From: Toxonevra muliebris
Taxonomy: Eukaryota > Arthropoda > Insecta > Diptera > Pallopteridae
Assembly: GCA_963691655.1 (NCBI GenBank)
Contig: OY829327.1
Coordinates: forward strand, 63,314,079 to 63,378,078
DNA: 64,000 nucleotides
Direction: 5' to 3'
Positions within the stretch are counted from its first letter, which is position 1; the number at the start of each line of letters is the position of its first letter. The notes beneath the pieces are model-generated. The model was given only the letters and a program-made list of their open reading frames with translations, ran no database searches and had not been told where the DNA came from. Shown piece by piece: positions 16,301 to 49,300 of the stretch. The translations under genes were made by a program, and so were the position numbers.

Positions 16301-19300
16301 GCTGTTAGAACTGATTTTCTTCAACATACCTGGAAGAAGTTTACGGAATTTCAAATACTTTCTACATAAAATTACATAGATCTTATTATGCTTATGTAAC
16401 AATCTAATAACTAGAACCTTAAGAGTATATAATTCACTGTCCAATAATCACTTTATTGATTTTTCCGTGTCCAGAACTGAATTTTATAAACTTATTTGTA
16501 GTATATTTTTATAATTATATGCATTCATAACATACTATTTTTAAAATTTTTTTAATTGTATTTCTAGTCAGTAAGATTATTATCTATTTGGCTTAATAAA
16601 CTAAACTTAACTAAACTAAAATAGCAAAAGATCATAGATAATATTAAAATTAAAGATCATAGATGATTAAAATTGTTTTTTAATAAAGCAAATTTTTGTT
16701 CAAACTTTGACACAAAAAACCGAAAATACTTTTTATATGACTCAATATTTTGTATCTTTCATATCTTTAGGTACAGTACTTAAGTTAAAAACTTTGTTGT
16801 CTAGTCTCTAGGGATATTATATGGTCCATTGTTTTAAATGAAATGAAATTTGCTTGGAAAACCCAAAATTTGTGCATCATTTTCTCTGAAAAAGTACACA
16901 TACACACATATGTGTAATTAAGGTTTTGGGCATTTTTTTTTTTAATTGTAATTTTTTTCTTAAATTCCAGAGATATAATGAGAGTTAATAAGCATTAGGT
17001 TTTCTCATAAATTCATTAGAATTTTGAAAAATTAACTAAAATGAATTCTAAAACTGCGAAAACTTGACCTTGGAGGGAGAAGAGCTTATAGGTTAAAAAA
17101 AAAAATAAGTTGTTTTTTGTAAATAAAATTTTTGTTTTTGCAACACTTTGAAACAAAGTGGTACGTCTATCATTATTATGAGTAGTAATATGTTTAATGG
17201 TTTGTGCGTTTGATTACAAATTATAGATGGCGTTTCGTCCCGGAATGGTGGACTTACCGGAAGGGCATCGAGAAGCAAATGTCAATGCAATTACGCTGCC
17301 TGAGGTCTTTCACGACTTTGATACAGCTCTTCCAGAATTGAATGATATCGACATTGAAGCCCAGTTTTCAATTAATCAATCAAGAGCGGACGAAATTACT
17401 ATGCGTGAGGATTACGGTAGCCTATCTTTATCAATGCAAGACGATGGTTTTGGTGATATTGGGTTTGAAGGGGACACGCCAGACTTAATACGTGGAGCAT
17501 TAGACTCAAGCATAAATGTAAGTATTTATATATCAAAAGTAAAAAAATAAAAAATTCCTGAAACAGCTTTGTGTCTCAATTTGCCCATTTTGTATGGAAA
17601 AAAGGCAGAAAGGACTAATTAAAAGTAGAAGTTAAATTACTCCTGAATAATATTTCGCGAGGAAATTTATCATCTAAGAGGTTTTGGGATAAAGATATAT
17701 AAATTATTTACCCCACTTTAAAAATGATATATCTTTTTTCTACATTGACAATTTATAGAATTTTTGTTAAATGACAAATTTTCTACGTTTAAAGATCTGG
17801 TTTTGGCAGATTCTAATTAATCGTAAATCTGCCAATCCGACTTTGAAAAATGTTATGGCCTTTCCGATCTAAGGTATCGATGTAATACAAAATTTATCGT
17901 TTTTAAAACTTGAGATGATTTTCGGTAGCCTATTTATAAAAAATAATGAAAATTAAAAAACACATTTCACATTTGGAGCTCAAAACAGTGTTGAACTTGA
18001 AGGTGAAAAACATATATTATTTTGAAAATTCGTTTGAAACACTATCCAAATCAACTATTATTACGAAAACACAGAGCTTTTAAATTCAGTAATAAGGTTT
18101 ATTAAGTTCAATGATTAAAGTTAGTAGATTAAATAGTAAAGTACAGAAGTAAACGCAAGTGCGTTGCGTTTGACAGAAAGCTATTGAAAATAGTTTGACA
18201 TATCGAATATGATTTAACAAACATAATAAGAACAAATGCTAAAAACAGAGTTGTATGCAATGTTACTTTAAGGAATGTATCGATCAAAAATGACTGAAAA
18301 TATAGAGGTTCACGAAAACGTGTCCAATATGTGATCACATATATCGAATTGTTTAAACAATTGTTATTCCTACAGAAATCGGCAACTCTGTTATCAATCC
18401 CAATATTATCAATTGCTCTTAATATTAAATTGGATATAATCTCATAAGTTTCTCTCTCTTCCGAAGGCAAGTCTAGAATTTTAATACTGAATCGCAGTCT
18501 GACGATCTCAAACTGTAGTTTTCCTTAATTGTGCCGTAAGCCCATATATCTTCACAACCCGATAGAGTCAGTCGTGACAGGGATAAATTTAAAACACAAT
18601 CGAAGACGAAGGAATTTCTGTTTCCTTATGTCGTTTCCCTCGTTAGCAATATGAAAGCATCGATTGCATTTTTCGCAATGAATATCGTTCTCCTACTGCA
18701 TTTGCAGATTAGAATTAAAAAGTTTTTTCCAACGCTTTGGCATTGTGCACTGAAAAAACAAAATATTCTTAATTCTTTGAGAGTAAAAGCAATGTTCCCT
18801 TTTTTTTAGGTTTTTTAAAAATTTGGATGGGGAAACAAAAAACAGTACAAAGTGATGGGTTCATTCACAAACACTAGGAACCATTTTATTCGCAAAGCCC
18901 ATTTAGCGCAGTAGTAGTGGATCAGCTCCAAAGTTCTAGGAAACAATCTTAAAATGTAATTAATTCTTTAGAAATTATTGGTCAGTAACTGCACGAATTT
19001 TGGGAATATAAGCCAACCTCATCCTGATTCCTTATCATGACACGAATTCTCACTGATAATCATTTGAAAAAAATGAGCCTCTGACTCTTTAGTATTTTTG
19101 ATAATTGTTTTGAGGTCGGGCTCATCATCAGTAATGGCAAGTCACTGTCAATTTTCTTCGAATGAAACCAATTTTGGAGTCTGTAATATTAGCACCAAAA
19201 AATGATGATTGTTCTTTTTATCAACGGTGTGAAGATAGCCACGCGTGGCTATCTTAGCAAATACACAAACCACAAAATGTAAAAATTTCTATGTTAACTT

Positions 19301-22300
19301 AACAGAAAAAATGTTAACCAAAAAATGTTATGTTAAGCACAACATAGAATATTCGTTCGGATCCTGATGACCATTTGGAGAACTGACTGTGACCACCAGA
19401 CATACCATTCCATAGGTATTGAACTACTGTCTTATCCTGCATACACAAATTTCACATATTTATCTCAGATTATTTTTAATTAATTTCTAAAATATATCAT
19501 TTTGTAAACTGAGTTGGAGGAATCTGGTGGTTATATGGAGCACTTCTACATATGTGCCAGATATGACATGGGTATCAGTGGATAGGTATTGAGGAGTAGA
19601 TCAATCCTGCATTTCCCAAATATCTAACATTAATTTCGGTCTACTAGTAACGGCTGTTTGAAAATTTGCATATTGGGTGGAGGAACTGGTGGCCATATGG
19701 AGCACTTCTACATATGTGCCAGATATGACATGGGTATCAGTGGATTGGTATTGAGGAGTGGATCAATCCTGCATTTCCCAAATATCTAACATTAATTTCG
19801 GTCTACTAGTAACGGCTGTTTGAAAATTTACATATTGGGTGCAAATGGGTGGAGGAACTGGTGGCCATATGGAGCACTTCTACATATGTGCCAGATATGA
19901 CATGGGTATCAGTGGATTGGTATTGAGGAGTAGATCAATCCTGCATTTCCCAAATATCTAACATTAATTTCGGTCTACTAGTAACGGCTGTTTGAAAATT
20001 TGCATATTGGGTGGAGGAACTGGTGGCCATATGGAGCACTTGTACATATGTGCCAGACATGACATGGGTATCAGTGGATTGGTATTGAGGAGTAGATCAA
20101 TCCTGCATTTCCCAAATATCTAACATTAATTTCGGTCTACTAGTAACGGCTGTTTGAAAATTTACATATTGGGTGCAAATGGGTGGAGGAACTGGTGGCC
20201 ATATGGAGCACTTCTACATATGTGCCAGACATGACATGGGTATCAGTGGATTGGTATTGAGGAGTAGATCAATCCTGCATTTCCCAAATATCTAACATTA
20301 ATTTCGGTCTACTAGTAACGGCTGTTTGAAAATTTACATATTGGGTGCAAATGGGCGGAGGAACAGGTGGCCATATGGAGCACTTCTACATATGTGCCAG
20401 ATATGACATGGGTATCAGTGGATAGGTATTGAGGAGTAGATCAATCTTGCATTTCCCAAATATCTAACATTAATTTCGGTCTACTAGTAACGGCTGTTTG
20501 AAAATTTGCATGTTGGGTGCAAATGGGTGGAGGAACTGGTGGCTATATGGAGCACTTCTACATATGTGCCAGATATGACATGGGTATCAGTAGATAGGTA
20601 TTGAGGAGTAGATCAATCCTGCGTTTCCCAAATATCTAACATTAATTTCGGTCTACTAGTAACGGCTGTTTGAAAATTTGCATGTTAGGTGCAAATGGGC
20701 GGAGGAACTGGTGGACATATGGAGCACTTCTACATATGTGCCAGATATGACATGGGTATCAGTGGATAGGTATTGAGGAGTAGATCAATCCTGCATTTCC
20801 CAAATATCTAACATTAATTTCGGTCTACTAGTAACGGCTGTTTGAAAATTTGCATGTTGGGTGCAAATGGGCGGAGGAACTGGTGGCCATATGGAGCACT
20901 TCTACATATGTGCCAGATATGACATGGGTATCAGTGGATAGGTATTGAGGAGTAGATCAATCCTGCATTTCCCAAATATCTAACATTAATTTCGGTCTAC
21001 TAGTAACGGCTGTTTGAAAATTTGCATATTGGGTGGAGGAACTGGTGGCCATATGGAGCACTTCTACATATGTGCCAGATATGACATGGGTATCAGTGGA
21101 TAGGTATTGAGGAATAGATCAATCCTGCATTTCCCAAATATCTAACATTAATTTCGGTCTACTAGTAACGGCTGTTTGAAAATTTGCATGTTGGGTGCAA
21201 ATGGGCGGTGGAACTGGTGGCCATATGGAGCACTTCTACATATGTGCCAGATATGACATGGGTATCAGTGGATAGGTATTGAGGAGTAGATCAATCCTGC
21301 ATTTCCCAAATATCTAACATTAATTTCGGTCTACTAGTAACGGCTGTTTGAAAATTTGCATATTGGGTGGAGGAACTGGTGGCCATATGGAGCACTTCTA
21401 CATATGTGCCAGATATGACATGGGTATCAGTGGATAGGTATTGAGGAATAGATCAATCCTGCATTTCCCAAATATCTAACATTAATTTCGGTCTACTAGT
21501 AACGGCTGTTTGAAAATTTGCATGTTAGGTGCAAATGGGCGGAGGAACTGGTGGTCATATGGAGCACTTCTACATATGTGCCAGATATGACATGGGTATC
21601 AGTGGATTGGTATTGAGGAGTGGATCAATCCTGCATTTCCCAAATATCTAACATTAATTTCGGTCTACTAGTAACGGCTGTTTGAAAATTTACATATTGG
21701 GTGCAAATGGGTGGAGGAACTGGTGGCCATATGGAGCACTTCTACATATGTGCCAGATATGACATGGGTATCAGTGGATTGGTATTGAGGAGTAGATCAA
21801 TCCTGCATTTCCCAAATATCTAACATTAATTTCGGTCTACTAGTAACGGCTGTTTGAAAATTTGCATGTTGGGTGCAAATGGGCGGTGGAACTGGTGGCC
21901 ATATGGAGCACTTCTACATATGTGCCAGATATGACATGGGTATCAGTGGTTAGGTATTGAGGAGTAGATCAATCCTGCATTTCCCAAATATCTAACATTA
22001 ATTTCGGTCTACTAGTAACGGCTGTTTGAAAATTTGCATATTGGGTGGAGGAACTGGTGGCCATATGGAACACTTGTACATATGTGCCAGACATGACATG
22101 GGTATCAGTGGATTGGTATTGAGGAGTAGATCAATCCTGCATTTCCCAAATATCTAACATTAATTTCGGTCTACTAGTAACGGCTGTTTGAAAATTTGCA
22201 TGTTGGGTGCAAATGGGCGGTGGAACTGGTGGCCATATGGAGCACTTCTACATATGTGCCAGATATGACATGGGTATCAGTGGATAGGTATTGAGGAATA

Positions 22301-25300
22301 GATCAATCCTGCATTTCCCAAATATCTAACATTAATTTCGGTCTACTAGTAACGGCTGTTTGAAAATTTGCATGTTAGGTGCAAATGGGCGGAGGAACTG
22401 GTGGTCATATGGAGCACTTCTACATATGTGCCAGATATGACATGGGTATCAGTGGATTGGTATTGAGGAGTGGATCAATCCTGCATTTCCCAAATATCTA
22501 ACATTAATTTCGGTCTACTAGTAACGGCTGTTTGAAAATTTACATATTGGGTGCAAATGGGTGGAGGAACTGGTGGCCATATGGAGCACTTCTACATATG
22601 TGCCAGATATGACATGGGTATCAGTGGGTTGGTATTGAGGAGTAGATCAATCCTGCATTTCCCAAATATCTAACATTAATTTCGGTCTACTAGTAACGGC
22701 TGTTTGAAAATTTGTATGTTGGGTGCAAATGGGCGTAGGAACTGGTGGTCATATGGAGCACTTGTACATATGTGCCAGATATCACATGGGTATCAGTGGA
22801 TAGGTATTGAGGAGTAGATCAATCCTGCATTTCCCAAATATCTAACATTAATTTCGGTCTACTAGTAACGGCTGTTTGAAAATTTGCATGTTGGGTGCAA
22901 ATGGGCGGAGGAACTGGTGGCTATATGGAGCACTTCTACATATGTGCCAGATATGACATGGGTATCAGTGGATAGGTATTGAGGAGTAGATCAATATTGC
23001 ATTTCCCAAATATCTAACATTAATTTCGGTCTACTAGTAACGGCTGTTTGAAAATTTGCATGTTGGGTGCAAATGGGTGGAGGAACTGGTGGCTATATGG
23101 AGCACTTCTACATATGTGCCAGATATGACATGGGTATCAGTGGATAGGTATTGTGGAGTAGATCAATCTTGCATTTCCCAAATATCTAACATTAATTTCG
23201 GTCTACTAGTAACGGCTGTTTGAAAATTTGCATGTTAGGTGCAAATGGGCGGAGGAACTGGTGGACATATGGAGCACTTCTACATATGTGCCAGATATGA
23301 CATGGGTATCAGTGGATAGGTATTGAGGAGTAGATCAATCCTGCATTTCCCAAATATCTAACATTAATTTCGGTCTACTAGTAACGGCTGTTTGAAAATT
23401 CGCATATTGGGTGGAGGAACTGGTGGTCATATGGAGCACTTGTACATATGTGCCAGACATGACATGGGTATCTGTGGATAGGTATTGAGGAGTAGATCAA
23501 TACTGCATTTCCCAAATATCTAACATTAATTTCGGTCTACTAGTAACGGCTGTTTGAAAATTTGGATGTTGGGTGCAAATGGGTGGAGGAACTGGTGGCC
23601 ATATGGAGCACTTCTACATATGTGCCAGATATGACATGGGTATCAGTGGATAGGTATTGAGGAGTAGATCAATCCTGCATTTCCCAAATATCTAACATTA
23701 ATTTCGGTCTACTAGTAACGGCTGTTTGAAAATTTGTATGTTGGGTGCAAATGGGCGGAGGAACTGGTGGTCATATGGAGCACTTGTACATATGTGCCAG
23801 ATATCACATGGGTATCAGTGGATAGGTATTGAGGAGTAGATCAATCCTGCATTTCCCAAATATCTAACATTAATTTCGGTCTACTAGTAACGGCTGTTTG
23901 AAAATTTGCATGTTGGGTGCAAATGGGCGGAGGAACTGGTGGCTATATGGAGCACTTCTACATATGTGCCAGATATGACATGGGTATCAGTGGATAGGTA
24001 TTGAGGAGTAGATCAATCCTGCATTTCCCAAATATCTAACATTAATTTCGGTCTACTAGTAACGGCTGTTTGAAAATTCGCATATTGGGTGGAGGAACTG
24101 GTGGTCATATGGAGCACTTGTACATATGTGCCAGACATGACATGGGTATCTGTGGATAGGTATTGAGGAGTAGATCAATCCTGCGTTTCCCAAATATCTA
24201 ACATTAATTTCGGTCTACTAGTAACGGCTGTTTGAAAATTTGCATATTGGGTGGAGGAATTGGTGGCCATATGGAGCACTTCTACATATGTGCCAGATAT
24301 GACATGGGTATCAGTGGATAGGTATTGAGGAATAGATCAATCCTGCATTTCCCAAATATCTAACATTAATTTCGGTCTACTAGTAACGGCTGTTTGAAAA
24401 TTTGCATGTTGGGTGCAAATGGGCGGTGGAACTGGTGGCCATATGGAGCACTTCTACATATGTGCCAGATATGACATGGGTATCAGTGGATAGGTATTGA
24501 GGAGTAGATCAATCCTGCATTTCCCAAATATCTAACATTAATTTCGGTCTACTAGTAACGGCTGTTTGAAAATTCGCATATTGGGTGGAGGAACTGGTGG
24601 TCATATGGAGCACTTGTACATATGTGCCAGACATGACATGGGTATCTGTGGATAGGTATTGAGGAGTAGATCAATCCTGCGTTTCCCAAATATCTAACAT
24701 TAATTTCGGTCTACTAGTAACGGCTGTTTGAAAATTTGCATATTGGGTGGAGGAATTGGTGGCCATATGGAGCACTTCTACATATGTGCCAGATATGACA
24801 TGGGTATCAGTGGATAGGTATTGAGGAGTAGATCAATCCTGCATTTCCAAAATATCTAACATTAATTTCGGTCTACTAGTAACGGCTGTTTGAAAATTTG
24901 GATGTTGGGTGCAAATGGGTGGAGGAACTGGTGGCCATATGGAGCACTTCTACATATGTGCCAGATATGACATGGGTATCAGTGGATAGGTATTGAGGAG
25001 TAGATCAATCCTGCATTTCCCAAATATCTAACATTAATTTCGGTCTACTAGTAACGGCTGTTTGAAAATTCGCATATTGGGTGGAGGAACTGGTGGTCAT
25101 ATGGAGCACTTGTACATATGTGCCAGACATGACATGGGTATCTGTGGATAGGTATTGAGAAGTAGGGATTAGACTATCTTAGTTGTATCGTTTCGCGTTT
25201 TTATTTTATTTTTTGGTCTTAAGCGATCTAGGCATCGATTTTCTTTTATGCGGTCTTGTCGAATCTCTTGTTATATGGAAGCAGTAGTCAGTAGTCAAAA

Positions 25301-28300
25301 GCGCTAAATTTTTATTCTTCCTTGAAGTTGGTTAATTTTTCAGGGAAGCAGTCTTTGTGTGAGTCTAAGGAGTGGACCTTCAGACGCCCTATATTTATTT
25401 GCTGCAATTTTCATGTTTAGCTGTCCGAAGTACGTAAAAGAAAAATAGTAGAATCCTTACCACAGAAAAATTTTGCAAAATTTGTGTAGGGAAAAGCGAA
25501 AGTTACATCAAACTTTAAAAAATAAATTAAAAAATTATTTTCTTTATCAACTTTGTGCATGATTATATTGGTGTTCGCTGTTCGACGAATATATCACATT
25601 TCTATGGTAAAGACTCTCTCTTTGTGTTGGATGCAATAACAATTTCATGGTGTTCGCCGAGCACAAATTGAAATATAATCACTCACTTATTGGCGTTATC
25701 TCGCATTTTAACATTCTTGGTGAAGAGTGTAGAGCAGGTGAGCGTTGAGCGCAAGATGATTGCAGATTATGTAAATGTAGTGGTGCAAGCCAATGGTTTA
25801 AAAGATCGTGAGTGGAGAGTTGGCATTTTATTCTTGAGCGACTGAATAAATGCAAGTGATGAAGGAGACTTGATTGAATCAATTGATGGTGAGAGAAGTG
25901 GTGAACGTGAGTACGACAATGTTGATTATGAAAAGCGAAGAGATGATGAGAAAGCTGAGATGACCATAGAAAATGAATCAGAAATAGTGGTGTAGGTGAC
26001 GAAGAAATTTGAGTAATATAATGTTGGCACACAATTGGAACGACGGAGACAACAATTCATTTTTTATACACATAACATTATGCGAGAAAAAAAGAAATGG
26101 TGACGATTTGGTTTTTTCCTCCACTTAACTAGTTGTTTATTCCCATAACTTTTTTATATTTGTTTAAATCGTAAAAATCTTTTCATATTTCTAGATATGT
26201 TTACTAAAATAAATATCAAATTTTCCATTGAAATTTAGGATGAAGCTATTTTTAAGACCATAAAAAATCATCCCAATATCGTTTACAATTGCTCTAATTG
26301 AGCTACCATCACAAGCGAATTAATTTCCGTTATTGGTGTTTTAATACCGACGTTGAATCGCAAAAAACTGCTTTCGTGATTTAGCTATAAATGACTCAAA
26401 ATAAAGAAAGATAATAATTTTTCCCAACTTATCAATTCTTATGAAATTTCTGCCTCTTAAGGAAATCGATTAAGCCTCAGTGATTGAAACAGAAATAACG
26501 CAAATTAAATAACTGGTGGTGTTAGCGCAATTAAAGAAGTTTTAGATTGAATTGGGATGATTTTTTATGGTCTCAATAATAGCTTCATCCTCAATTTTAA
26601 TAATTGATATTTGTTGTTGTTTTTCGCTGTGACCCACTTCTCTCTTAACTCCTCTTCGTCTACAAAATTATACAAATTTCTGGCAATGAGAGGACTATCT
26701 CATTGGAAATTTTACTGCTCATCATTGCACTTTTGTCCTTTAATGGTCACAGTTGAAATATTTGGGTGCCCTTTGCTTGTTTAAAGTCATTTTAAAAGTT
26801 TTATACCGTGTGAAAAAAAATATATAAAAATGAAACGAGACAAATTTTTTAATATATTTGTTAAATTGTCTTTAATTAATAAAAAAGAAATTTTTAAAAT
26901 TCATATAAGTAACGAAGAATGTAGTGACATTATTAAAAATTACAACAACTGCATGGAGTTCTTAAAATATAAAAAACGGTGCCATCCTGTGGCGGATAAC
27001 ACGCGTAATAAAAAGCGGATAATAAATCGGTGGAAACCAATTGTAAGTAGAAAAGTTAGCAATACTAATTAAAAATACATTTTTTAACTTTTTTTGGGGA
27101 TGCATTTAATTTTCGTTTTATTAGGACGTGAAGTAAGCAGGTAGTAGGGCAAATCAATAAACAAAAAAAAATGCCTCTAAAAGCACGGAATTTCGTTTCT
27201 CTTTCTTCGTTCCTTTTTTTTTAATTTTTGCTTGACGTTATGGTGTTTTCTAGCCACTCATTTCCATAAGTGTTCTTTTAGGTTAGACAATTGTTGCTAG
27301 CAATTTTTTGGATTTTGTAGGCGAAGTAGGTAAGAAGGAGATACAAACTTGCCTGTCTTTTTCTATATACCAATTTTTTCTATCTCCCTCTTTGAGGCAG
27401 GCGTTCATGATTGCGCCCGTGTGAACAGCCACATTAATCGCTATATAATCTTGTAATAAATGAAAATCCATTTAATTTTTGCATTTAAGATGTTGTAAAT
27501 ACATTCAGTAGTAAGTATATCATGATCACCGTATCGGAAAGCGTAGTTTTGAGAAAAACGCATAAAAGGGTAAATTAATTATCAGATCAATTTTAAATAT
27601 TTACAAAATACTCTTGGAATATTGTAGCGGTATAACTAAAAAATTAAAAATCAGATTGATTGATTAACTCCGAAAATGTATTTTCATGCAATGTGTTTTT
27701 GAACGCCCTCACTTCTACCCAAAACTCAATTGCTGAGACTAGATTTGTCCAATCTTCAGTTAAAAGATTTCTTCATTGAATTTTGAACAATGTTATCATA
27801 TTTTCAGTATACTTTAACGTTTTATTATCAAAATGAGCATAAATGCTTGATTTTACTACTTTAAACTTAGAAAGCTAATCTATTTTTAAGTAGTACTTAT
27901 ATAAAAGGTAAATAAGAAAAAAGTAATAAAATTAATGATATAGAATAACTTAAGGGATGTCATGAGTTAGAAGGTTAAAAAGAAGCGTTTTTCGTGACTT
28001 TTTAGAAGTGAAAAAAAAGAAGTGAACCCATTGAACTTCAAGGTATATTTTTGTATATTTTCAAAGTATTTTGTTGAAAGTAAAATAATAAATTACAACA
28101 ATTTTATTAATGTATTTCATGAGCGTCTTGCCGCTGTAATTTTCAATCGGTGGGAAAGATCCAGCTTGTAATTCTTGACTGAAACAAAAAAAACAAAAAA
28201 AAAATTTCTTTGTTATATATTTCTTCTGGGTGAACCAAAATAAACAGAAAAAAGTGAATTTATAGTTTTCTCAGGTTTAAAAAAAAATTTAATTTTTAAA

Positions 28301-31300
28301 TTGCGACCAGATGGAATTTTGCAAGCCGAACATCCCCTGGTGAAATTTTAAACATCGAAAAACAATTAATAAGATGCTCGGTTACTATAACAGTATGGCA
28401 TGATAACTATGATTGGAGTTTTTAACTGGTCAAGATATCATTGGAATAATCCGTATCCTAATTATCAAGATCTGTCGAAGTGGCATATTGAATTTCTTAA
28501 CGCTGATTTTTATTCGATGCAAAAATTGTGATATGCTGCAGAATATTTTTCTATGTATGGAATAATGGAAGTTATATACAAATCTTACGATTATGCAAGT
28601 AAAAACAAGTATCCTCCAGTGAGCAAACCAGTGTCTAATGAAGGGATGTTTGATACTCCAAGTCGAAGAAATTGCCATGAAGAAAAACTGAAAATTAAAT
28701 TGCGACCATCTGATGACAAGATCTTCAATATCGATTATACAATTCTCAAATTTACAATGGGATTAGAGAAGATGATGAAATGAAGTGGTGAGGGGAGAAG
28801 TGTGTGATGGTTATTTCAGTAACAAAATCCGTAACAGGGATGAACCACAACCCTACAGCGTCGATAATTACAGAATTGGTAGTGATGATTATATTATCTT
28901 GGAATTGGATGCTGAGTTTCTTAATATTGATGCAATAATGTTGTCAAAAGACACCAGGCAAAAATGAAATATAAGCAATATTTAATATTAGGGATCCCGA
29001 CAAACAAAAGAAAATTAAATTGCAAACACTCGATAGCAAAATCTTCACTATTAATTCATGACAATTGAGTCAAAGCGAAGAACGCGTAAACGCGTGTTAT
29101 GTTGCTTTGACTGAACTCCGTAATACGCGTTCTATGCTTTCTGATCACTCAAAGTTGAGAATTTTTCTACGCTTTCATTTAATCATGGCTCGCAAAACGC
29201 GCAGAAAAGATGAAAATTCTCATCTTTGAACGCGCAGATTACGGAGTTACGGTTTTCGAGTGCTGTTGTATGTTGCATGACCATGCATGAATTTTGTTGC
29301 TTATATGTCGAGTTTGATGATTAAAACGCATGAGAAACTGGTGGGATACACAAACATGAATGCTAGTATGCTTTTCATCCCTCTCAATATAAGGTATTGA
29401 GTGTGAGTGAATCTGAACAATTTTTAAAGATTCTTGAAATGAATTTAAACATAAATCCTGCTTAAGCAATTATGTAGTCAATAGCCCTATTCACAATTTG
29501 GTGCAAATGGTCTTTCATCATTGCATATATATGTTATTGTGATAGCAGAAATATTTTTCATTTGTAGTGATGCAAGACCATTTGCACCAAATTGTGAATA
29601 GGACTAATATATTTGAAAAAGCTGATATCGTCTTGAATTTTTATATCGGATGACCGTGTTCTTTATTGGCGTAGCGTTAAATAGTTTGTCTAGGTGTATT
29701 CTGCTTCTGTTTACTTCACAAATGTCGAAGTCGCTATTTACAAACGGCACAAGGAATAGTCAAATCAAAACTCAATAGAATAAAATTAAACAAATTATAC
29801 GAATTTATTTTAGGAAATATAAAGAAATCATAAAAAAAAAATCCCAAAACAAAGTCACCTGATTCGAAATCCCCAAATTCAAAATCCTCAAACTTATAAT
29901 CTCCACACCCAAGATCCCCATTTTTTCAGTGAAATGCGTTGATGGTTAAAATCTACACAATTTTCAAATTCAAAACAAATTTTATTTATTGAAACATTTA
30001 ACATATGTAAGTAAGTAAAGGAAAATCAATACAAAATTAAAAAAAAAATATGACGATTTAACAAAACATTTCATATATATACATGACTTGCAAAAAAAGC
30101 TGTTGGCTTAAGCAAAACTAAATAACAAGAAAAAACAAGTCAAGTCCTACATAAATATAATTTAAACTTATTATGCGTTACAGATTATTTAAATTATTTG
30201 CGCTCAGTCAAAAGTCGATTGAGGCAGACACCGCTAACTTAAAGTTATTATAGTAAAATAACTAGGATGTGTACGAAATTATTTAACACGAATCCGTCGT
30301 TGGAATCAAATGATTTCAAATAAAAGTTTATACTCATGTTTTATAGTTCACATGAATAACTAAATAATACAACAACACAAAAATGTAAAAAAAAATTTAT
30401 TGAATAAAACTATAGAAAGGTTAATAATTCAATGAAAATAATCAGAAAAAAAATAATATTTAAAATCAGTCGGCTCTATTTTAGTTGTGGCATTATATTG
30501 TATCAAACTGATACATCAACGATTGATTTGGAAAATATGCAATACCACCTCAATACCTATAAACAAATCGAATTTGAAACGTTTTGGAAATATTAAAAAA
30601 AAATATGCGTTGCTTTATCGCATATTTTGCACTTTAATTAGAAAGTGACATAGTATATATATATAGTATATAGGATATACATCGCTTTTTTCATAGATTT
30701 TTTGTGGGTATACCTAAAGTTTAGGAAATAAAATCGGAATAAATTAAGAATAAGCCGTACAAACAACGTACTATTTTTTATTAATTGTACTACTTTAGCA
30801 CAATTTCAACTGCGTTCTACTTTCCCACTAAGCATTTCCAGTTTTCCAGTACATTTTTACAAAGATTTTCTCCATTCAATTTCATTCAGAAATGTAAATG
30901 CAACCTTTTAATATGCATTCTTGCGACTCTAATCCTTTTTTAATAGTGAAAGCTCAGAAAGTGACTCGTATAGCACGTAAACCACGAAAGCTGGGATATG
31001 TCAACTGTTCTCAATAATTTGCAAATAGTTCCACGTCTCAATTTCTGTGTTGCCTAAAAGATTTAATAAACATGGGCAATTAAGAAATTTAATCTAAGAT
31101 ACGAATCTATATTGTGTACTATACAGTATATTATAAAAGTACGTATGAGGTGACAAAAGTAAGTTTCCCAAACTTTAATATTCAAAATGTCCACATTTTA
31201 CTAAAGAAGTTTTAGTAAATTAGTCTTCAATAGCTTCAATAGTGAAAACAAGATTACCACATCGATCTAGACTATAGCCCTATTCACTTTTTAGAGTAAA

Positions 31301-37300: not shown

Positions 37301-40300
37301 ACATAATGTAAATGTATGTTACATATCTATTTCTGAAATATTTTACGCTTATAATTATTTAAAACGACTATGAAGCTTAGAAAAATAATTAATAAATGCA
37401 ATGGCTATGTAGCATTGTAAAAAAAAAGTACTTTTATTAAAAAAAATTTATTTTAAAAACCGTCCAAAAATTTTAAAAATTCAAGAGCAAACTACTTAAG
37501 AATTCAGAGCGTCCACTGTAGTAATGTGTTCAAGTAAAATAGTTTTCAATATTTTATCCCTGTATTTTAAAGGCCATGCTCAATTATTATATTCGCGAAG
37601 TCAGAAATATCAAAATGGTTAGTTATAAATTTAGAAAAAGTTTTTAATAATTTTTCTGTCTTTTTTTTAAAATTTTTTCCAAGAGGCTCTGGAAAGTGGA
37701 TTGTTTATTTTTAAAATTTGCGTATAACATTTTAAATGCATTATGTGTTTTTGGAATTATTACAATATCGTTGTTAGAAATTTGTCTATTTTAGTTTATT
37801 TTTTCGGTTTTGTAATTTAGTTTCATCCTGAGCACTAAAACTTTCTCTATTTTAATTTAAAATATTATCAGGTGTGTATACATATATAGGATCTGTGCGA
37901 AATGTGACTAAATTTTAACAACTAGCTAAATATTCCAGAACTGCTTTACAGATTTCAAAGCTGTGCGAAATGTTTCCAATATTAAATTGGTGGTAAATGC
38001 TAAATTGATAAATAGCTGTGTTGAAAGTTATCAAAAGAAGAAGAAGAAGAAGACAAGTTTTTTTAAACTCAATATATTTATTTTTTAACATTTTGCCTTT
38101 GGTTGTGAAATAAAACATGGATCAATGCACAAAAATAGTTACATTTTATATTTTCTAACATTTTAATAATTATTCATTCTGCGACCTTATCAATTCATAA
38201 ACTAAATTTCATTTACATCTTTCTTCGAGTTTGTTCTTTTGATCAATTTTCTTTATTGCCTCCATTCTAAAAGCTAGATAATATATTTTCTGGCAACAGC
38301 TGATTAGATTTAGCACGCTCAAAAAATGCTAAATTTTAGAAACATTCAACGTTGCGATATAGCAAAATATTTTAAATACATTATCGACGACATTTTCGAC
38401 ATTTCCAGCAATTTAGCCAATTGCTCAAATTTAGTCATATTTCGCACAGGCCCATAGTTCTATTTAATTATTACAAATTTCATTCGACCTGCCTAATGTA
38501 CATAATTATTTTAAATCAAAAAGTGGAATTGATCAACGTCATCTTTATGGAGCTTTTAAAAATTATGGTTATAATTGCTAATAACATATCGTACGCCCCT
38601 TAATTGCCTATGTAGTTTATCTATTAAATAATAGTTTGGTTAAAACGTGCTCACTATTGAAAATTTGAAATCTAATTTTTTACAACTTTTTCCAGAATCC
38701 ATAAAACTTTTATTTGTTTTCCTTTTCACTACTTGTGATACTCTTTCTCAAACATTTTCAAAAAACTATTTTTTTTGTCACGGACCATTTGAATAGAGTC
38801 CCTCTAATTCTAATGTTTTGATTTTATATAGATTTGTCTAATTCTTATGTATTAAGAGAGTCTTATATTTTTTCTTGTAAAAGAATGCGTTTTTGTATGA
38901 AAAATAAATTTCTACTGACCTATTTGACATTTGATGTTTTTCAGTTAATGCATTGTGGTATTTCTGTCTATATCGGTATTTACGGATATCATTTTTTAAT
39001 ATAATTTGTGACACATTTTCATTAAAAATAACTACTTTTTGTACTTAGCAATATATTTGATTTGGTTTTTCTTAAGATGTTGAGACATTTCATGTAGAAC
39101 GGACCTTCTTTGTTTGTTTTGCATTTTGTATTTGTGAACTAACTTAGGTTGTATACATAAATGGTTTTTAAGGCATCATCCTTCTCAGCTTTGATAACGA
39201 AAAAGACAGTAAACTTTGGTATATTGCGCCAAACCATGAAGTAAAATCTTTATTAAAAAAATATGTTTACTGCAGCTTCAATACTTTCTTTAAAAAAACC
39301 GGAGATCATAATTGATAGAAATATTTATTTTAAGTATCTTTAAATCCTAATTTTTTAAAAATAATTGAGACAGATTTGAAACCACAAATTTCAGTTTGCA
39401 TTTTTATTTTATTTCCAAACTTCTGCAAATTATGAAACAACTATTTAAATATAGTTTGATGGCATGAATTCCTGCATGTTTACATAAAATTAGTATGCAT
39501 GCATAGCTTCTATCTAGTCATATTTTTCAGCCAGCGACCACTGGATTTTATTTCTTAAGCAACACACTTGTGGGCTGCACATAAAAATCTTTCTATATCT
39601 TCTGAAAAGTGTTTGCAGAAAAGAGATTGTGCAATTGGATAATATATATTTCTGCTTCTGTTTGCTTTTCTTTAACATGTTTTATTTTTGTATTAATTGC
39701 AGCTGTTTTGCAGACCACAAGTTTATCTTTTATGGTTTGCTACCCTTTGTATAAAGTTTTCCAATTTTGTGTTTTCCTCATTTTTACTACAACAGCATCT
39801 TTTCATTTTCCCTATCAGCGGCCTCGTACCTTCAGACCTTATTTTTCGAACAACGTTCATTGTCCTTCTTTGGATATTTTCAACATTCCACAGTTCTTTA
39901 CGTTGTTGTCAAAGTTTACATCGCTTCAGTTACAATAGTCGCAAATTACTGCGAAATTTCCCACTTTTTTTTTTTTAATTTATCGAATGCTTCTGTCAAT
40001 TTTATTAGAAAATATTTTTATTTGTGGTTCAATTTTGTGAAATTTAGCACAAATTTAAAAATTTTTCAACCATAACACTGTATGCATTTTGCGAACTGTA
40101 TAAATTTCTTAGTTTTGTTAATGTTGCAGCTTTTAAAATTAAATGGGCAAACATAATTGAATTGTTTATATTTTTCCCTTATAAAATCCTCCTCATTTTT
40201 GGAAAATGGATTTCAGCTTTCAAAATATTGCTCACGCAAATACTTAAATTCAGAAATATTTATTTCAGCACTTTCGTATGGAAAACTTACTGACATTTTT

Positions 40301-43300
40301 CGTTTTTAATTGGCCAATTGACTTACTCATTTTAAACATGTGATCTTTTCTTTTCGCGTTTTTATTATTTTAACTCCTTTGCTTGTTGCTTTCAACATCT
40401 ATTATTTTTGACGTGGCTTCTATTTCAATGAGCAAACTATGGTTTTAAGTACCAAAGCACACTTTGTGATTCCTATTTATATCCTTTTTTTGACACATAT
40501 TGTACATATCAAACATAATAACAATGTGATATTACCTTATAATAAAGCTATGTAGAAATTAATTAACGTAATTTATATTATTTATATTAATATATGTTTT
40601 ATTTGAATTGAAAAATCATACGAAACCATTTGCTTAAAAAATAATCAAAAAATTTTGGTTTTAAGTATTTTATATATGTATTCTTTGACATATACTGTGT
40701 CAAACATATCAAACATGTGATATTTTCTCTTAATAAACCTACAAGGTAGTAATATAAAATTAAAAAACAAATTAAACAAATTGAAATTTATTTTAGTTTC
40801 ATTTTAAGCAAGTACAAAACCAAAAATATCAAAAAAAGACTCTAAGTCCATTTCCATTAGTACAGCAAACTAACAATACTTGCCTGTATATAAATGTTTC
40901 TGGTTGAAATTCTAATCATCGAGTGCCTCTACATGTAAGTATGTATATATTTATGTATAACAAGTTAAATATTTTATAATCGCTTTTATTTAATGTCAAC
41001 CAGAAGCTAACATCCAAAGACATATTCGGAGTAAGTACATTCACATAAGAGGTATTCCACTACCCAGTAGCTTCCACCAGATTTCTTATCAAAATATTTA
41101 AAAATTGATTAACAATCAGATTTCAGATTCAGAGATTCATATTTTTTGACCAACAAAGCTTACACATAATACAGAGTTGAGAAATTTTCTTAGGAATATA
41201 TAATAATATAAATATATATACAATATACATATTACAAATGTTATTAACATATACTCGTTTATGTATATTTAATCTAATAACATATAAGTCTTAACAATAG
41301 ATGATACCCATGTGATGTCGGCTAAAGTTGTACAAGTGCTCCATATGACCACCTGATTCCTCCACCCAGCTGCACCCAACATGAAAATTTTCAAACAGCC
41401 GTTACTAGTAGACCGAAATTAATGTTAGATATTTGGGAAATGCAGGATTGATCTACTCCTCAATACCTATCCACTGATACCCATGTGATATCTGGCACAT
41501 ATGTACAAGTGCTCCATATGACCACCAGTTCCTCCGCCCATTTGCACCCAACATACAAATTTTCAAACAGCCGTTACTAGTAGACCGAAATTAATGTTAG
41601 ATATTTGGGAAATGCAGGATTGATCTACTCCTCAATACCAATCCACTGATACCCATGTCATATCTGGCACATATGTAGAAGTGCTCCATATGGCCACCAG
41701 TTCCTCCGCCCATTTGCACCCAACATGCAAATTTTCAAACAGCCGTTACTAGTAGACCGAAATTAATGTTAGATATTTGGGAAATGCAGGATTGATCTAC
41801 TCCTCAATACCTATCCACAGATACCCATGTCATGTCTGGCACATATGTACAAGTGCTCCATATGTCCACCAGTTCCTCCACCCATTTGCACCCAACATGC
41901 AAATTTGCAAACAGCCGTTACTAGTAGACCGAAATTAATGTTAGATATTTGGGAAACGCAGGATTGATCTACTCCTCAATACCTATCCACTGATACCCAT
42001 GTCATATCTGGCACATATGTAGAAGTGCTCCATATGGCCACCAGTTCCTCCGCCCATTTGCACCCAACATGCAAATTTTCAAACAGCCGTTACTAGTAGA
42101 CCGAAATTAATGTTAGATATTTGGGAAATGCAGGATTGATCTACTCCTCAATACCAACCCACTGATACCCATGTCATATCTGGCACATATGTAGAAGTGC
42201 TCCATATGGCCACCAGTTCCTCCACCCATTTGCACCCAATATGTAAATTTTCAAACAGCCGTTACTAGTAGACCGAAATTAATGTTAGATATTTGGGAAA
42301 TGCAGGATTGATCTACTCCTCAATACCTATCCACTGATACCCATGTGATATCTGGCACATATGTACAAGTGCTCCATATGACCACCAGTTCCTCCGCCCA
42401 TTTGCACCCAACATACAAATTTTCAAACAGCCGTTACTAGTAGACCGAAATTAATGTTAGATATTTGGGAAATGCAGGATTGATCTACTCCTCAATACCA
42501 ATCCACTGATACCCATGTCATATCTGGCACATATGTAGAAGTGCTCCATATGGCCACCAGTTCCTCCGCCCATTTGCACCCAACATGCAAATTTTCAAAC
42601 AGCCGTTACTAGTAGACCGAAATTAATGTTAGATATTTGGGAAATGCAGGATTGATCTATTCCTCAATACCTATCCACTGATACCCATGTCATATCTGGC
42701 ACATATGTAGAAGTGCTCCATATGGCCACCAGTTCCACCGCCCATTTGCACCCAACATGCAAATTTTCAAACAGCCGTTACTAGTAGACCGAAATTAATG
42801 TTAGATATTTGGGAAATGCAGGATTGATCTATTCCTCAATACCTATCCACTGATACCCATGTCATATCTGGCACATATGTAGAAGTGCTCCATATGGCCA
42901 CCAGTTCCACCGCCCATTTGCACCCAACATGCAAATTTTCAAACAGCCGTTACTAGTAGACCGAAATTAATGTTAGATATTTGGGAAATGCAGGATTGAT
43001 CTACTCCTCAATACCAACCCACTGATACCCATGTCATATCTGGCACATATGTAGAAGTGCTCCATATGGCCACCAGTTCCTCCGCCCATTTGCACCCAAC
43101 ATGCAAATTTTCAAACAGCCGTTACTAGTAGACCGAAATTAATGTTAGATATTTGGGAAATGCAGGATTGATCTATTCCTCAATACCTATCCACTGATAC
43201 CCATGTCATATCTGGCACATATGTAGAAGTGCTCCATATGGCCACCAGTTCCACCGCCCATTTGCACCCAACATACAAATTTTCAAACAGCCGTTACTAG

Positions 43301-46300
43301 TAGACCGAAATTAATGTTAGATATTTGGGAAATGCAGGATTGATCTACTCCTCAATACCAACCCACTGATACCCATGTCATATCTGGCACATATGTAGAA
43401 GTGCTCCATATGGCCACCAGTTCCTCCACCCATTTGCACCCAATATGTAAATTTTCAAACAGCCGTTACTAGTAGACCGAAATTAATGTTAGATATTTGG
43501 GAAATGCAGGATTGATCTACTCCTCAATACCAACCCACTGATACCCATGTCATATCTGGCACATATGTAGAAGTGCTCCATATGGCCACCAGTTCCTCCG
43601 CCCATTTGCACCCAACATGCAAATTTTCAAACAGCCGTTACTAGTAGACCGAAATTAATGTTAGATATTTGGGAAATGCAGGATTGATCTATTCCTCAAT
43701 ACCTATCCACTGATACCCATGTCATATCTGGCACATATGTAGAAGTGCTCCATATGGCCACCAGTTCCACCGCCCATTTGCACCCAACATGCAAATTTTC
43801 AAACAGCCGTTACTAGTAGACCGAAATTAATGTTAGATATTTGGGAAATGCAGGATTGATCTATTCCTCAATACCTATCCACTGATACCCATGTCATATC
43901 TGGCACATATGTAGAAGTGCTCCATATGGCCACCAGTTCCTCCGCCCATTTGCACCCAACATACAAATTTTCAAACAGCCGTTACTAGTAGACCGAAATT
44001 AATGTTAGATATTTGGGAAATGCAGGATTGATCTATTCCTCAATACCTATCCACTGATACCCATGTCATATCTGGCACATATGTAGAAGTGCTCCATATG
44101 TCCACCAGTTCCTCCACCCATTTGCACCCAACATGCAAATTTGCAAACAGCCGTTACTAGTAGACCGAAATTAATGTTAGATATTTGGGAAACGCAGGAT
44201 TGATCTACTCCTCAATACCTATCCACTGATACCCATGTCATATCTGGCACATATGTAGAAGTGCTCCATATGGCCACCAGTTCCTCCGCCCATTTGCACC
44301 CAACATGCAAATTTTCAAACAGCCGTTACTAGTAGACCGAAATTAATGTTAGATATTTGGGAAATGCAGGATTGATCTACTCCTCAATACCTATCCACTG
44401 ATACCCATGTCATATCTGGCACATATGTAGAAGTGCTCCATATGGCCACCAGTTCCTCCGCCCATTTGCACCCAACATACAAATTTTCAAACAGCCGTTA
44501 CTAGTAGACCGAAATTAATGTTAGATATTTGGGAAATGCAGGATTGATCTACTCCTCAATACCAACCCACTGATACCCATGTCATATCTGGCACATATGT
44601 AGAAGTGCTCCATATGGCCACCAGTTCCTCCGCCCATTTGCACCTAACATGCAAATTTTCAAACAGCCGTTACTAGTAGACCGAAATTAATGTTAGATAT
44701 TTGGGAAATGCAGGATTGATCTATTCCTCAATACCTATCCACTGATACCCATGTCATATCTGGCACATATGTAGAAGTGCTCCATATGGCCACCAGTTCC
44801 ACCGCCCATTTGCACCCAACATGCAAATTTTCAAACAGCCGTTACTAGTAGACCGAAATTAATGTTAGATATTTGGGAAATGCAGGATTGATCTATTCCT
44901 CAATACCTATCCACTGATACCCATGTCATATCTGGCACATATGTAGAAGTGCTCCATATGGCCACCAGTTCCTCCGCCCATTTGCACCCAACATGCAAAT
45001 TTTCAAACAGCCGTTACTAGTAGACCGAAATTAATGTTAGATATTTGGGAAATGCAGGATTGATCTACTCCTCAATACCTATCCACTGATACCCATGTCA
45101 TATCTGGCACATATGTAGAAGTGCTCCATATGTCCACCAGTTCCTCCACCCATTTGCACCCAACATGCAAATTTGCAAACAGCCGTTACTAGTAGACCGA
45201 AATTAATGTTAGATATTTGGGAAATGCAGGATTGATCTACTCCTCAATACCAACCCACTGATACCCATGTCATATCTGGCACATATGTAGAAGTGCTCCA
45301 TATGGCCACCAGTTCCTCCGCCCATTTGCACCTAACATGCAAATTTTCAAACAGCCGTTACTAGTAGACCGAAATTAATGTTAGATATTTGGGAAATGCA
45401 GGATTGATCTATTCCTCAATACCTATCCACTGATACCCATGTCATATCTGGCACATATGTAGAAGTGCTCCATATGGCCACCAGTTCCACCGCCCATTTG
45501 CACCCAACATGCAAATTTTCAAACAGCCGTTACTAGTAGACCGAAATTAATGTTAGATATTTGGGAAATGCAGGATTGATCTACTCCTCAATACCAATCC
45601 ACTGATACCCATGTCATATCTGGCACATATGTAGAAGTGCTCCATATGTCCACCAGTTCCTCCACCCATTTGCACCCAACATACAAATTTGCAAACAGCC
45701 GTTACTAGTAGACCGAAATTAATGTTAGATATTTGGGAAACGCAGGATTGATCTACTCCTCAATACCTATCCACTGATACCCATGTCATATCTGGCACAT
45801 ATGTAGAAGTGCTCCATATGGCCACCAGTTCCACCGCCCATTTGCACCCAACATGCAAATTTTCAAACAGCCGTTACTAGTAGACCGAAATAAATGTTAG
45901 ATATTTGGGAAATGCAAGATTGATCTACTCCTCAATACCTATCCACTGATACCCATGTCATATCTGGCACATATGTAGAAGTGCTCCATATGTCCACCAG
46001 TTCCTCCGCCCATTTGCACCTAACATGCAAATTTTCAAACAGCCGTTACTAGTAGACCGAAATTAATGTTAGATATTTGGGAAACGCAGGATTGATCTAC
46101 TCCTCAATACCTATCTACTGATACCCATGTCATATCTGGCACATATGTAGAAGTGCTCCATATAGCCACCAGTTCCTCCACCCATTTGCACCCAACATGC
46201 AAATTTTCAAACAGCCGTTACTAGTAGACCGAAATTAATGTTAGATATTTGGGAAATGCAGGATTGATCTACTCCTCAATACCAATCCACTGATACCCAT

Positions 46301-49300
46301 GTCATGTCTGGCACATATGTACAAGTGCTCCATATGGCCACCAGTTCCTCCACCCAATATGCAAATTTTCAAACAGCCGTTACTAGTAGACCGAAATTAA
46401 TGTTAGATATTTGGGAAATGCAGGATTGATCTACTCCTCAATACCTATCCACTGATACCCATGTCATATCTGGCACATATGTAGAAGTGCTCCATATGGC
46501 CACCAGTTCCACCGCCCATTTGCACCCAACATGCAAATTTTCAAACAGCCGTTACTAGTAGACCGAAATTAATGTTAGATATTTGGGAAATGCAGGATTG
46601 ATCTACTCCTCAATACCAATCCACTGATACCCATGTCATGTCTGGCACATATGTACAAGTGCTCCATATGGCCACCAGTTCCACCGCCCATTTGCACCCA
46701 ACATGCAAATTTTCAAACAGCCGTTACTAGTAGACCGAAATTAATGTTAGATATTTGGGAAACGCAGGATTGATCTACTCCTCAATACCTATCTACTGAT
46801 ACCCATGTCATATCTGGCACATATGTAGAAGTGCTCCATATAGCCACCAGTTCCTCCACCCATTTGCACCCAACATGCAAATTTTCAAACAGCCGTTACT
46901 AGTAGACCGAAATTAATGTTAGATATTTGGGAAATGCAGGATTGATCTACTCCTCAATACCAATCCACTGATACCCATGTCATGTCTGGCACATATGTAC
47001 AAGTGCTCCATATGGCCACCAGTTCCACCGCCCATTTGCACCCAACATGCAAATTTTCAAACAGCCGTTACTAGTAGACCGAAATTAATGTTAGATATTT
47101 GGGAAACGCAGGATTGATCTACTCCTCAATACCTATCTACTGATACCCATGTCATATCTGGCACATATGTAGAAGTGCTCCATATAGCCACCAGTTCCTC
47201 CACCCATTTGCACCCAACATGCAAATTTTCAAACAGCCGTTACTAGTAGACCGAAATTAATGTTAGATATTTGGGAAATGCAGGATTGATCTACTCCTCA
47301 ATACCAATCCACTGATACCCATGTCATGTCTGGCACATATGTACAAGTGCTCCATATGGCCACCAGTTCCACCGCCCATTTGCACCCAACATGCAAATTT
47401 TCAAACAGCCGTTACTAGTAGACCGAAATTAATGTTAGATATTTGGGAAACGCAGGATTGATCTACTCCTCAATACCTATCTACTGATACCCATGTCATA
47501 TCTGGCACATATGTAGAAGTGCTCCATATAGCCACCAGTTCCTCCACCCATTTGCACCCAACATGCAAATTTTCAAACAGCCGTTACTAGTAGACCGAAA
47601 TTAATGTTAGATATTTGGGAAATGCAGGATTGATCTACTCCTCAATACCAATCCACTGATACCCATGTCATGTCTGGCACATATGTACAAGTGCTCCATA
47701 TGGCCACCAGTTCCACCGCCCATTTGCACCCAACATGCAAATTTTCAAACAGCCGTTACTAGTAGACCGAAATTAATGTTAGATATTTGGGAAATGCAAG
47801 ATTGATCTACTCCTCAATACCTATCCACTGATACCCATGTCATATCTGGCACATATGTAGAAGTGCTCCATATGTCCACCAGTTCCTCCGCCCATTTGCA
47901 CCTAACATGCAAATTTTCAAACAGCCGTTACTAGTAGACCGAAATTAATGTTAGATATTTGGGAAACGCAGGATTGATCTACTCCTCAATACCTATCTAC
48001 TGATACCCATGTGATATCTGGCACATATGTAGAAGTGCTCCATATAACCACCAGATTCCTCCAACTCAGTTTACAAAATGATATATTTTAGAAATTAATT
48101 AAAAATAATCTGAGATAAATATGTGAAATTTGTGTATGCAGGATAAGACAGTAGTTCAATACCTATGGAATGGTATGTCTGGTGGTCACAGTCAGTTCTC
48201 CAAATGGTCATTAGGATCCGATAGAATATTCTATATTCTGCTTAACATTACATTTTTTGGTTAACATTTTGTCTGTTAAGTTAACATAGAAATTTTTACA
48301 TTTTGTGGTTTGTGTATTTGCTAAGATAGCCACGCGTGGCTATCTTCACACCGTTCTTTTTATCAATAATGAAATTCTTAATCGTATGCAAGGAAAAGAA
48401 AAAGCATACTGCAGTTTTAATAAGATTGCTAAGCGGTTTTGGAAAAGAACTGTATTGTACTAGTTATATGCAATTTAAATATAAAGGATGTGTTAGTAAA
48501 TAGAACTCGAATGTGCGTGAAACAAATGCATAGATACTTAGGTTAGGTAGGTAGTACTGGCTGGCCGAAGCCACGCATAGACCTTTAGGTCCTTAGCGAT
48601 ACCAGATAGGAGTCCTAGGAATTATTTATCGCGTGTATATTTAGCAAGTGTAAACGTCATTTAAGATGCGGGTGTGATCAGTAAACTTTAAAAGACAGTT
48701 CACCCCCAGTTTAGCGACCTCGTTCAGACCTTCAAACTGTGTAGCTTCTAAATTCGTTAATCGAGGTCTAGTGAGCGCGGGGCAAGAGGATAGAAGCTGC
48801 TCTAAAATTTCCCTCACATCTTGCTCCATACATTTCCTGCAACTATCATTGTCAGTTATCTTTAGTTTAAGCACGTGCGTTGCCACCAAACAATGGCCAG
48901 TTAGTACGCCAATTACGGTGCATAGATACTTAAGATTGTGAAGTGTTAGCTGGTGGTATACGTAGGTTTATGGGCTATCCATCAGGGCACAAGTGACATA
49001 AGAATTTTAATTCCTCGAATTAATTTAACTTATTCTGGCACATTTTTACTTTGTTTTTTCCAACGTACTTAATTTCCAGTCATTCCAACTTTTTGCAAAG
49101 TGCAAATATTCTACAATGTTGGAATTTTACGACATCCTGTGATTACTCTTAGGCAATTTTATGTTGCTGCCCGTAGAGTATGATAGTTTGATGGATTGCG
49201 AGTTAACATTTTGGAAATCTCAGATCAAGGTTATTTATCTAATGACAATAGAATAGAATTCACAAAAAATATTGTTTATATACAAGTTATTGGCTCTTAA

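What the first reader, a model, noticed from the sequence alone, without database searches (positions are those of the whole stretch)
19223..48355. A 29-kb Foldback-type DNA transposon of the MULE/NOF group with an intact transposase gene
Seen: inverted ends, exact 9-bp target duplication, 5.9-kb and 7.0-kb inverted arms built of tandem repeats, and a long intact ORF in the middle. Known: Drosophila FB elements have long inverted arms of tandem repeats, some carrying NOF, and belong near MULE transposons. Inferred: this is an autonomous relative that is unusually large. Giant intact members with arrays of more than 30 units per arm are not something I know from the literature.
Basis: partly seen in the sequence, partly recalled or inferred. 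Interest (0 to 1): 0.92.

Follow-up and report, generated by a model that had tools for sequence, protein, structure and literature searches.

The report
Giant foldback transposon with SUMO-protease transposase
This is a 29-kb jumping DNA element with long mirror-image arms of repeated 172-letter units and one unbroken gene, predicted to encode a transposase joined to a SUMO-protease-like domain, and it is likely the copy that drives many shorter, apparently gene-less relatives found in the same animal genome.

Summary
Window 19223-48355 (29,133 bp) lies between exact 9-bp duplications. Its inverted ends are 292 bp plus arrays of 172/162-bp units (34 left, 39 right), and it carries one intact long ORF.

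(1) The gene probably has an upstream exon, 1,142 aa in all, with a conserved D-D-E triad and C-x2-H motif, a C-terminal Ulp1/SENP protease fold and a PHD-like zinc finger. (2) A decayed second transposase copy lies tail-to-tail inside the core and is probably older than this element. (3) Siblings: 38 other scored ends (40 of 234 candidates scored) are 97% identical to the left end; 14 oppositely oriented pairs span 3.3-15.7 kb without a detectable transposase; 5 of 6 tested pairs have exact 9-bp duplications. The only intact cognate gene found is the window's. (4) Two further families here, with unrelated units, share the plan.

The closest named kind is Rehavkus (Repbase): 9-bp duplication, PHD finger, minisatellite. 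Membership is only partly tested; no Repbase or NOF sequence could be compared, and no MULE model matched. I call it a new variant of a known kind: a giant, apparently autonomous foldback element. The protease domain is the most interesting part.

The parts
19214..19222 (.). left target site duplication CTTTTTATC
19223..19514 (+). left outer inverted repeat, 292 bp, not tandemly repeated; begins AACGGTGTG
19232..19255 (.). 24-bp perfect palindrome near the tip (mirror copy 48323-48346); likely recognition site, inferred
   Evidence: inner part kept in a 72% diverged relative
19515..25165 (+). left arm array, 34 anchored units; spacing 172 bp (22 of 33) or 162 bp (11 of 33)
26830..27042 (+). 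probable exon 1 (71 codons), donor GTAAGT; homologous stretch, itself frame-broken, in the chromosome C4 relative
27043..33859 (+). probable intron, 6.8 kb; about 340 bp in the C4 relative, so expanded by insertions
31536..32356 (.). high-copy genomic repeat nested in the intron
35051..35950 (+). predicted DDE catalytic region, residues D385, D463, C515-x2-H518, E684 of the 1,058-aa ORF
36245..36901 (+). Ulp1/SENP-fold cysteine protease domain (residues 783-1001; H900, D917, Q956, C962)
36917..37048 (+). C-terminal PHD-like zinc finger, C4-D/C-C3 pattern (residues 1007-1050)
37087..40429 (-). decayed inverted second transposase copy, tail-to-tail with the intact one, 71-78% identical in DNA, many stops
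41302..48062 (-). right arm array, 39 anchored units (37 of 38 spacings 172 bp)
48064..48355 (-). right outer inverted repeat, 292 bp
48356..48364 (.). right target site duplication CTTTTTATC

Best explanation
This is a 29,133-bp foldback DNA transposon between exact 9-bp target duplications, with one intact long reading frame that likely encodes, together with a predicted upstream exon, its own DDE transposase fused to a Ulp1-like protease-fold domain, so it is probably the autonomous member that moves a family of array-bearing siblings by cut-and-paste. Shown: the anatomy, the 9-bp duplications in 5 of 6 tested pairs, the units in all 18 sibling ends read, the conserved catalytic residues, and no transposase match between 14 other end pairs. 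Inferred: the protein binds sites in the terminal palindrome and the tandem units, pairs the two ends, cuts at AACGGTGTG and inserts with a 9-bp stagger. The units resemble the inner part of the outer repeat and likely arose from it by tandem duplication. They are homogenised between arms, probably by conversion or hairpin-mediated exchange. Siblings likely arise when the core is lost and only arms remain; the one copy read in full, 3,333 bp, is nothing but ends and units. Speculative: the protease removes SUMO from the transposase or from host silencing proteins.
Against: No expression, excision or insertion was observed. The window ends differ from the sibling ends by 8 and 3 of 292 bases, so this copy is not their recent twin; another source copy, absent from the assembly, is possible. 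The RNase H region of the models has low confidence (pLDDT below 50 over residues 258-431), and neither the fold-search rows shown nor Pfam recognised a transposase there. The splice junction is predicted only. The middles of 13 of the 14 paired siblings were not read, and pairing rests on position and orientation. The core search was swamped by a high-copy repeat (40 of 7,651 candidates scored; it did not list even the known C4 relative), so it does not show that the core is unique.
Confidence: 0.8

Rival explanations
1. A former autonomous copy that is now inactive: the gene is open but no longer expressed or competent, and the recent siblings were moved by another copy missing from the assembly.
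For: The window ends differ from the sibling ends, which are mutually identical in 18 of 18 fetched. The intron has been swollen by about 6.5 kb of insertions including a high-copy repeat. Another copy at C4:53.1 Mb abuts an assembly gap.
Against: The reading frame is intact over 1,058 codons, catalytic residues are conserved and the branch is short. No other intact cognate gene was found in 491 Mb (best candidates only).
Confidence: 0.25
2. A true close relative of Drosophila NOF carried inside FB elements.
For: Foldback plan with tandem-repeat arms and a 9-bp duplication. The one relative that came with an organism name is a dipteran protein, Haematobia irritans LOC142235706.
Against: No NOF sequence was at hand, so homology is untested. 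FB units of a few tens of bases (recalled) differ from 162-172 bp here.
Confidence: 0.3
3. A composite: two separate elements or a satellite array that trapped an unrelated gene, or an assembly artefact.
For: The core holds two transposase copies and the arms differ in length.
Against: Outer repeats, arrays and 9-bp duplications recur in siblings. The tail-to-tail pair is shared with a relative at C1:95.48 Mb, whose inverted copy groups with the window's inverted copy (support 1.000 and 0.997 in two fragment trees; long branches of decayed copies could inflate this). The C4 relative carries a 72% outer repeat next to related core and gene. The window has no N.
Confidence: 0.04
4. A canonical Mutator-like (MULE) element enlarged by arrays.
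For: DDE with C-x2-H between the second D and E, and a 9-bp duplication.
Against: No MULE model was listed for any of 10 family members at E <= 10. The arthropod MULE survey reports complete elements of 1,875-9,972 bp and uses Rehavkus as outgroup (PMC13359780, passages).
Confidence: 0.15

Closest known systems
Rehavkus DNA transposons (Repbase), including Rehavkus-1_TC of Tribolium castaneum
   Same: 9-bp duplication, outer repeat within 26-400 bp, one ORF, PHD-type finger, minisatellite (PMC6446971, passages); Rehavkus-1_TC has a 164-bp unit in its inverted termini (PMC10218199, passages)
   Different: 29.1 kb against 9.5 kb; 34 and 39 units against mostly five and eight; Ulp1 fold and decayed inverted second gene not mentioned in the passages read; no Rehavkus sequence compared
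Tetris foldback element of Drosophila virilis
   Same: Foldback plan, 8-10-bp duplications, about 220-bp units likely derived from the outer repeat (PMC4079207, passages)
   Different: Tetris is non-autonomous and that paper did not find its transposase; here a likely driver gene is intact
Drosophila FB/NOF
   Same: Long inverted arms of tandem repeats around a coding core, 9-bp duplication (recalled)
   Different: Protein relation untested; unit length differs (recalled)
Galileo (P superfamily)
   Same: Long internally repeated ends; repeats hold extra transposase binding sites (PMC3688188, abstract)
   Different: P-type transposase with a THAP domain
Tm1 of Meloidogyne
   Same: Foldback-like ends, 9-bp duplication, a single transposase copy with many gene-less siblings (PMC3169594, passages)
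   Different: 496-aa Phantom-type transposase recognised by the Pfam MULE model; about 14-bp motif
Plant MULEs with a Ulp1-like gene (Kaonashi; recalled)
   Same: DDE transposon associated with a Ulp1-like protease
   Different: Plants; here the protease fold is the C-terminus of the transposase polypeptide

Membership tests
Foldback-type element (structural class) | long inverted arms built of tandem repeats around a middle domain | tested here: met
Foldback-type element (structural class) | moves as a unit, with target duplication at independent sites | tested here: met
   5 of 6 pairs exact 9 bp, sixth at an assembly gap
Rehavkus | 9-bp target duplication | tested here: met
   definition from PMC6446971
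Rehavkus | outer inverted repeat of 26-400 bp | tested here: met
   292 bp outside the arrays; with the arrays the inverted arms are far longer
Rehavkus | minisatellite next to the terminal repeat | tested here: met
   here in both arms
Rehavkus | PHD finger in the transposase | tested here: inconclusive
   Cys pattern kept in 8 of 10 (P0006 lacks several, P0007 is truncated); the His position is D or C in 8 of 10, E in one, gap in one; weak profile hits to PHD fingers (CHD4 E 1, BAZ2A E 9.7) among LIM/FYVE and other hits
Rehavkus | transposase homologous to Repbase Rehavkus proteins | not testable with these tools
   no Repbase sequence held
MULE superfamily | DDE triad with C-x2-H motif between second D and E | tested here: met
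   D, D, E and C-x2-H in 10, 10, 9 and 10 of 10 members; motif definition recalled
MULE superfamily | match to curated MULE transposase models | tested here: not met
   0 of 10 members at E <= 10; not filed as a canonical MULE
Drosophila NOF | homology to the NOF protein | not testable with these tools
   no NOF sequence returned
Ulp1/SENP cysteine protease (C48) | fold and H-D-Q-C catalytic set | tested here: met

The most novel reading that the evidence does not exclude
An animal transposon that carries its own deSUMOylase on its transposase: the protease domain strips SUMO from host silencing factors, or from the transposase itself, where the enzyme binds the repeated arms. This would shield the element family from SUMO-dependent piRNA silencing and explain both the retained domain and the burst of near-identical siblings.
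Probability: 0.2. Interest if true: 0.88.

Novelty: new variant of a known kind. Interest (0 to 1): 0.62.

Why it matters
Foldback elements cause inversions and seed satellite DNA, yet the enzyme that moves them can be missing, as for Tetris (PMC4079207, passages). Here a likely driver gene, the ends it would act on and many near-identical siblings without a detectable transposase sit in one genome, so the question of how foldback arms are cut, paired and expanded becomes testable. [quoted passage not shown]).

Tried and rejected
Assembly artefact or chance: rejected through sibling ends with clean 9-bp duplications. A single-exon gene: replaced by a two-exon model after comparison with C4, which keeps an exon-1 stretch (frame-broken) about 340 bp before exon 2. 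The degenerate copy as a later nested insertion: thought unlikely, because it is shared with C1:95.48 Mb (long branches are a caveat). Shared ancestry of units across families: unit sequences of the window family, C5 and C1a/C2 did not exceed shuffled controls convincingly against each other; only C1a and C2 clearly share units. Empty site: joined window flanks matched only their own loci fully; partial hits in two fetched loci cover a repeat in the left flank, so no empty site was found among the loci held.

Led nowhere: a full-length protein search gave no hit at 1e-3; restricting it to residues 340-760 gave seven at E <= 10; a profile search returned only P0001. Viral and prokaryote contig scans found no relative. 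No transposase fold appeared in the Foldseek or VIA rows shown, which were filled by the protease domain; that is no evidence of absence. Rfam: none at gathering scores. The core search was swamped by a repeat. Literature: no paper in the held library holds 'SUMO protease', 'transposase domain', 'transposon' and 'MULE' together, and none of the 16 papers listed held both Ulp1 and Foldback. This speaks only for that library and those terms. Host species: not determined.
Full report
What is there. The unit 19223-48355 lies between CTTTTTATC copies. From the outside in, it has a 292-bp outer inverted repeat, an array of 172-bp units (162-bp variant in 11 of 33 left and 1 of 38 right spacings), and a core from about 25.2 to 41.3 kb. 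The arms match inverted over 6,053 columns at 94.8%. Units are as similar between arms (0.967) as within them (0.967 left, 0.971 right), and identical units occur in both arms, so the arms have likely exchanged units. The nearest unit lies in the same arm for 50 of 71, so exchange is not complete. The outer repeat contains a diverged relative of the unit (local score 55 against a maximum of 32 in 200 shuffles). The units therefore likely arose by tandem duplication of the inner part of the outer repeat, as proposed for Tetris (PMC4079207, passages).

The gene. The ORF 33899-37075 is intact. In a diverged relative on C4 (outer repeat 72%, transposase pieces mostly 83-89% in DNA) an exon-1-like stretch with a GTAAGT donor ends about 340 bp before the region homologous to the ORF; in C4 that stretch is itself frame-broken. 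The same stretch, open, with donor and acceptor, exists in the window at 26830-27042 and 33860, giving a predicted 1,142-aa protein. Codon-position differences support coding in both exons. The window's intron has grown to 6.8 kb and contains a high-copy genomic repeat.

The second copy. A decayed inverted transposase copy fills 37087-40429, tail-to-tail with the intact gene. Two fragment trees group it with the inverted copy of the relative at C1:95.48 Mb (support 1.000 and 0.997), not with the forward copies. Long branches of decayed copies could draw them together. If the grouping is right, the inverted duplication is older than the split of these elements, and one copy has stayed open while the other decayed.

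The family. Searching the 491-Mb genome with the outer repeat gave 40 scored ends out of 234 candidates: the two window ends and 38 others, all 38 at 97% identity to the left end. By position and orientation they form 15 pairs, including the window's, plus 10 single ends. The other 14 pairs span 3,333-15,657 bp and none contains a transposase match among the 40 rows. Six pairs, the window's included, could be checked for duplications: five are exact, the sixth abuts Ns. All 20 fetched ends, the window's two included, carry the units; one (L049) shows only two unit matches. The 18 fetched non-window ends are identical to one another over 292 bp and differ from the window ends by 8 and 3 bases; they were the best-scoring ones, so older copies may be among the unscored candidates. 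One sibling could be read in full: 3,333 bp, one unit on one side and 15 on the other, entirely covered by ends and arrays of the window element. A search with the left core (25200-33790) had a full-length match only at the window, but a high-copy repeat in the intron filled the list (40 of 7,651 candidates scored) and even the known C4 relative was not listed, so it does not show that the core is unique.

Other families with the same plan. C5:20.25 Mb has an open 976-aa relative flanked by 324-bp units and arms 99.5% identical over 2,581 columns, running off the fetched edge. C1:29.55 Mb has an open 923-aa relative between 165-bp arrays of at least 37.7 and 9.7 copies, both cut by the fetched edges. 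A decayed copy of the latter lies at C2:48.2 Mb. Their own end duplications were not seen. Unit sequences are unrelated between the three families but have lengths near 165-172 or about twice that, and the Tribolium Rehavkus unit is 164 bp (PMC10218199). The common length suggests a constraint such as nucleosome spacing (inference).

How it likely works. The protein would bind the conserved terminal palindrome, whose inner part is kept in the 72% diverged C4 end, and secondary sites in the units, as shown for Galileo (PMC3688188, abstract). It would then pair the ends, cut at AACGGTGTG and insert with a 9-bp stagger. Long near-identical inverted arms invite hairpins, unequal exchange and conversion, which would expand and even out the arrays and drop the core, giving array-only siblings. 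The role of the protease fold is open.

What it is called. Foldback-type is met. The published features of Rehavkus are met where testable, with the PHD finger inconclusive and sequence homology untestable. I do not file it as a canonical MULE, since no MULE model matches. NOF membership cannot be judged here. Size and unit number exceed what I found in the passages read: Rehavkus-1_TC 9.5 kb with mostly five and eight units; arthropod MULEs up to 9,972 bp (PMC13359780), a survey that uses Rehavkus only as outgroup.

Noticed in passing
window 53468-54418 (+): ORF whose first 30 residues resemble the RAD21 cohesin subunit (E 3.3e-4): probably an exon of a host gene 5 kb from the element.
   Followed up: partly
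window 9110-9404: A perfect tandem duplication of 147 bp.
   Followed up: no
window 2675-3403 (-) and 14399-16102 (+): Pieces of non-LTR retrotransposons: one frame weakly matches RNase H (E 3e-5); the others look like broken reverse transcriptase frames by eye.
   Followed up: no
C5:20241400-20261400 (L033, L031, L032): Both inverted arms of the C5 element carry a copy of the transposase gene's 3' end (52 residues, 84.6% identical), as if arms can capture core sequence.
   Followed up: partly
C4:27660.6-27663.4 kb (L040, L041): The C4 relative has several partial tandem copies of the transposase 5' part, and no array match.
   Followed up: partly
window arrays: The 162-bp unit variant is in 11 of 33 left spacings but only 1 of 38 right ones, despite overall homogenisation.
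   Followed up: no
families at C1, C2, C5 and the window: Unrelated units share lengths near 165-172 bp or about double that.
   Followed up: no
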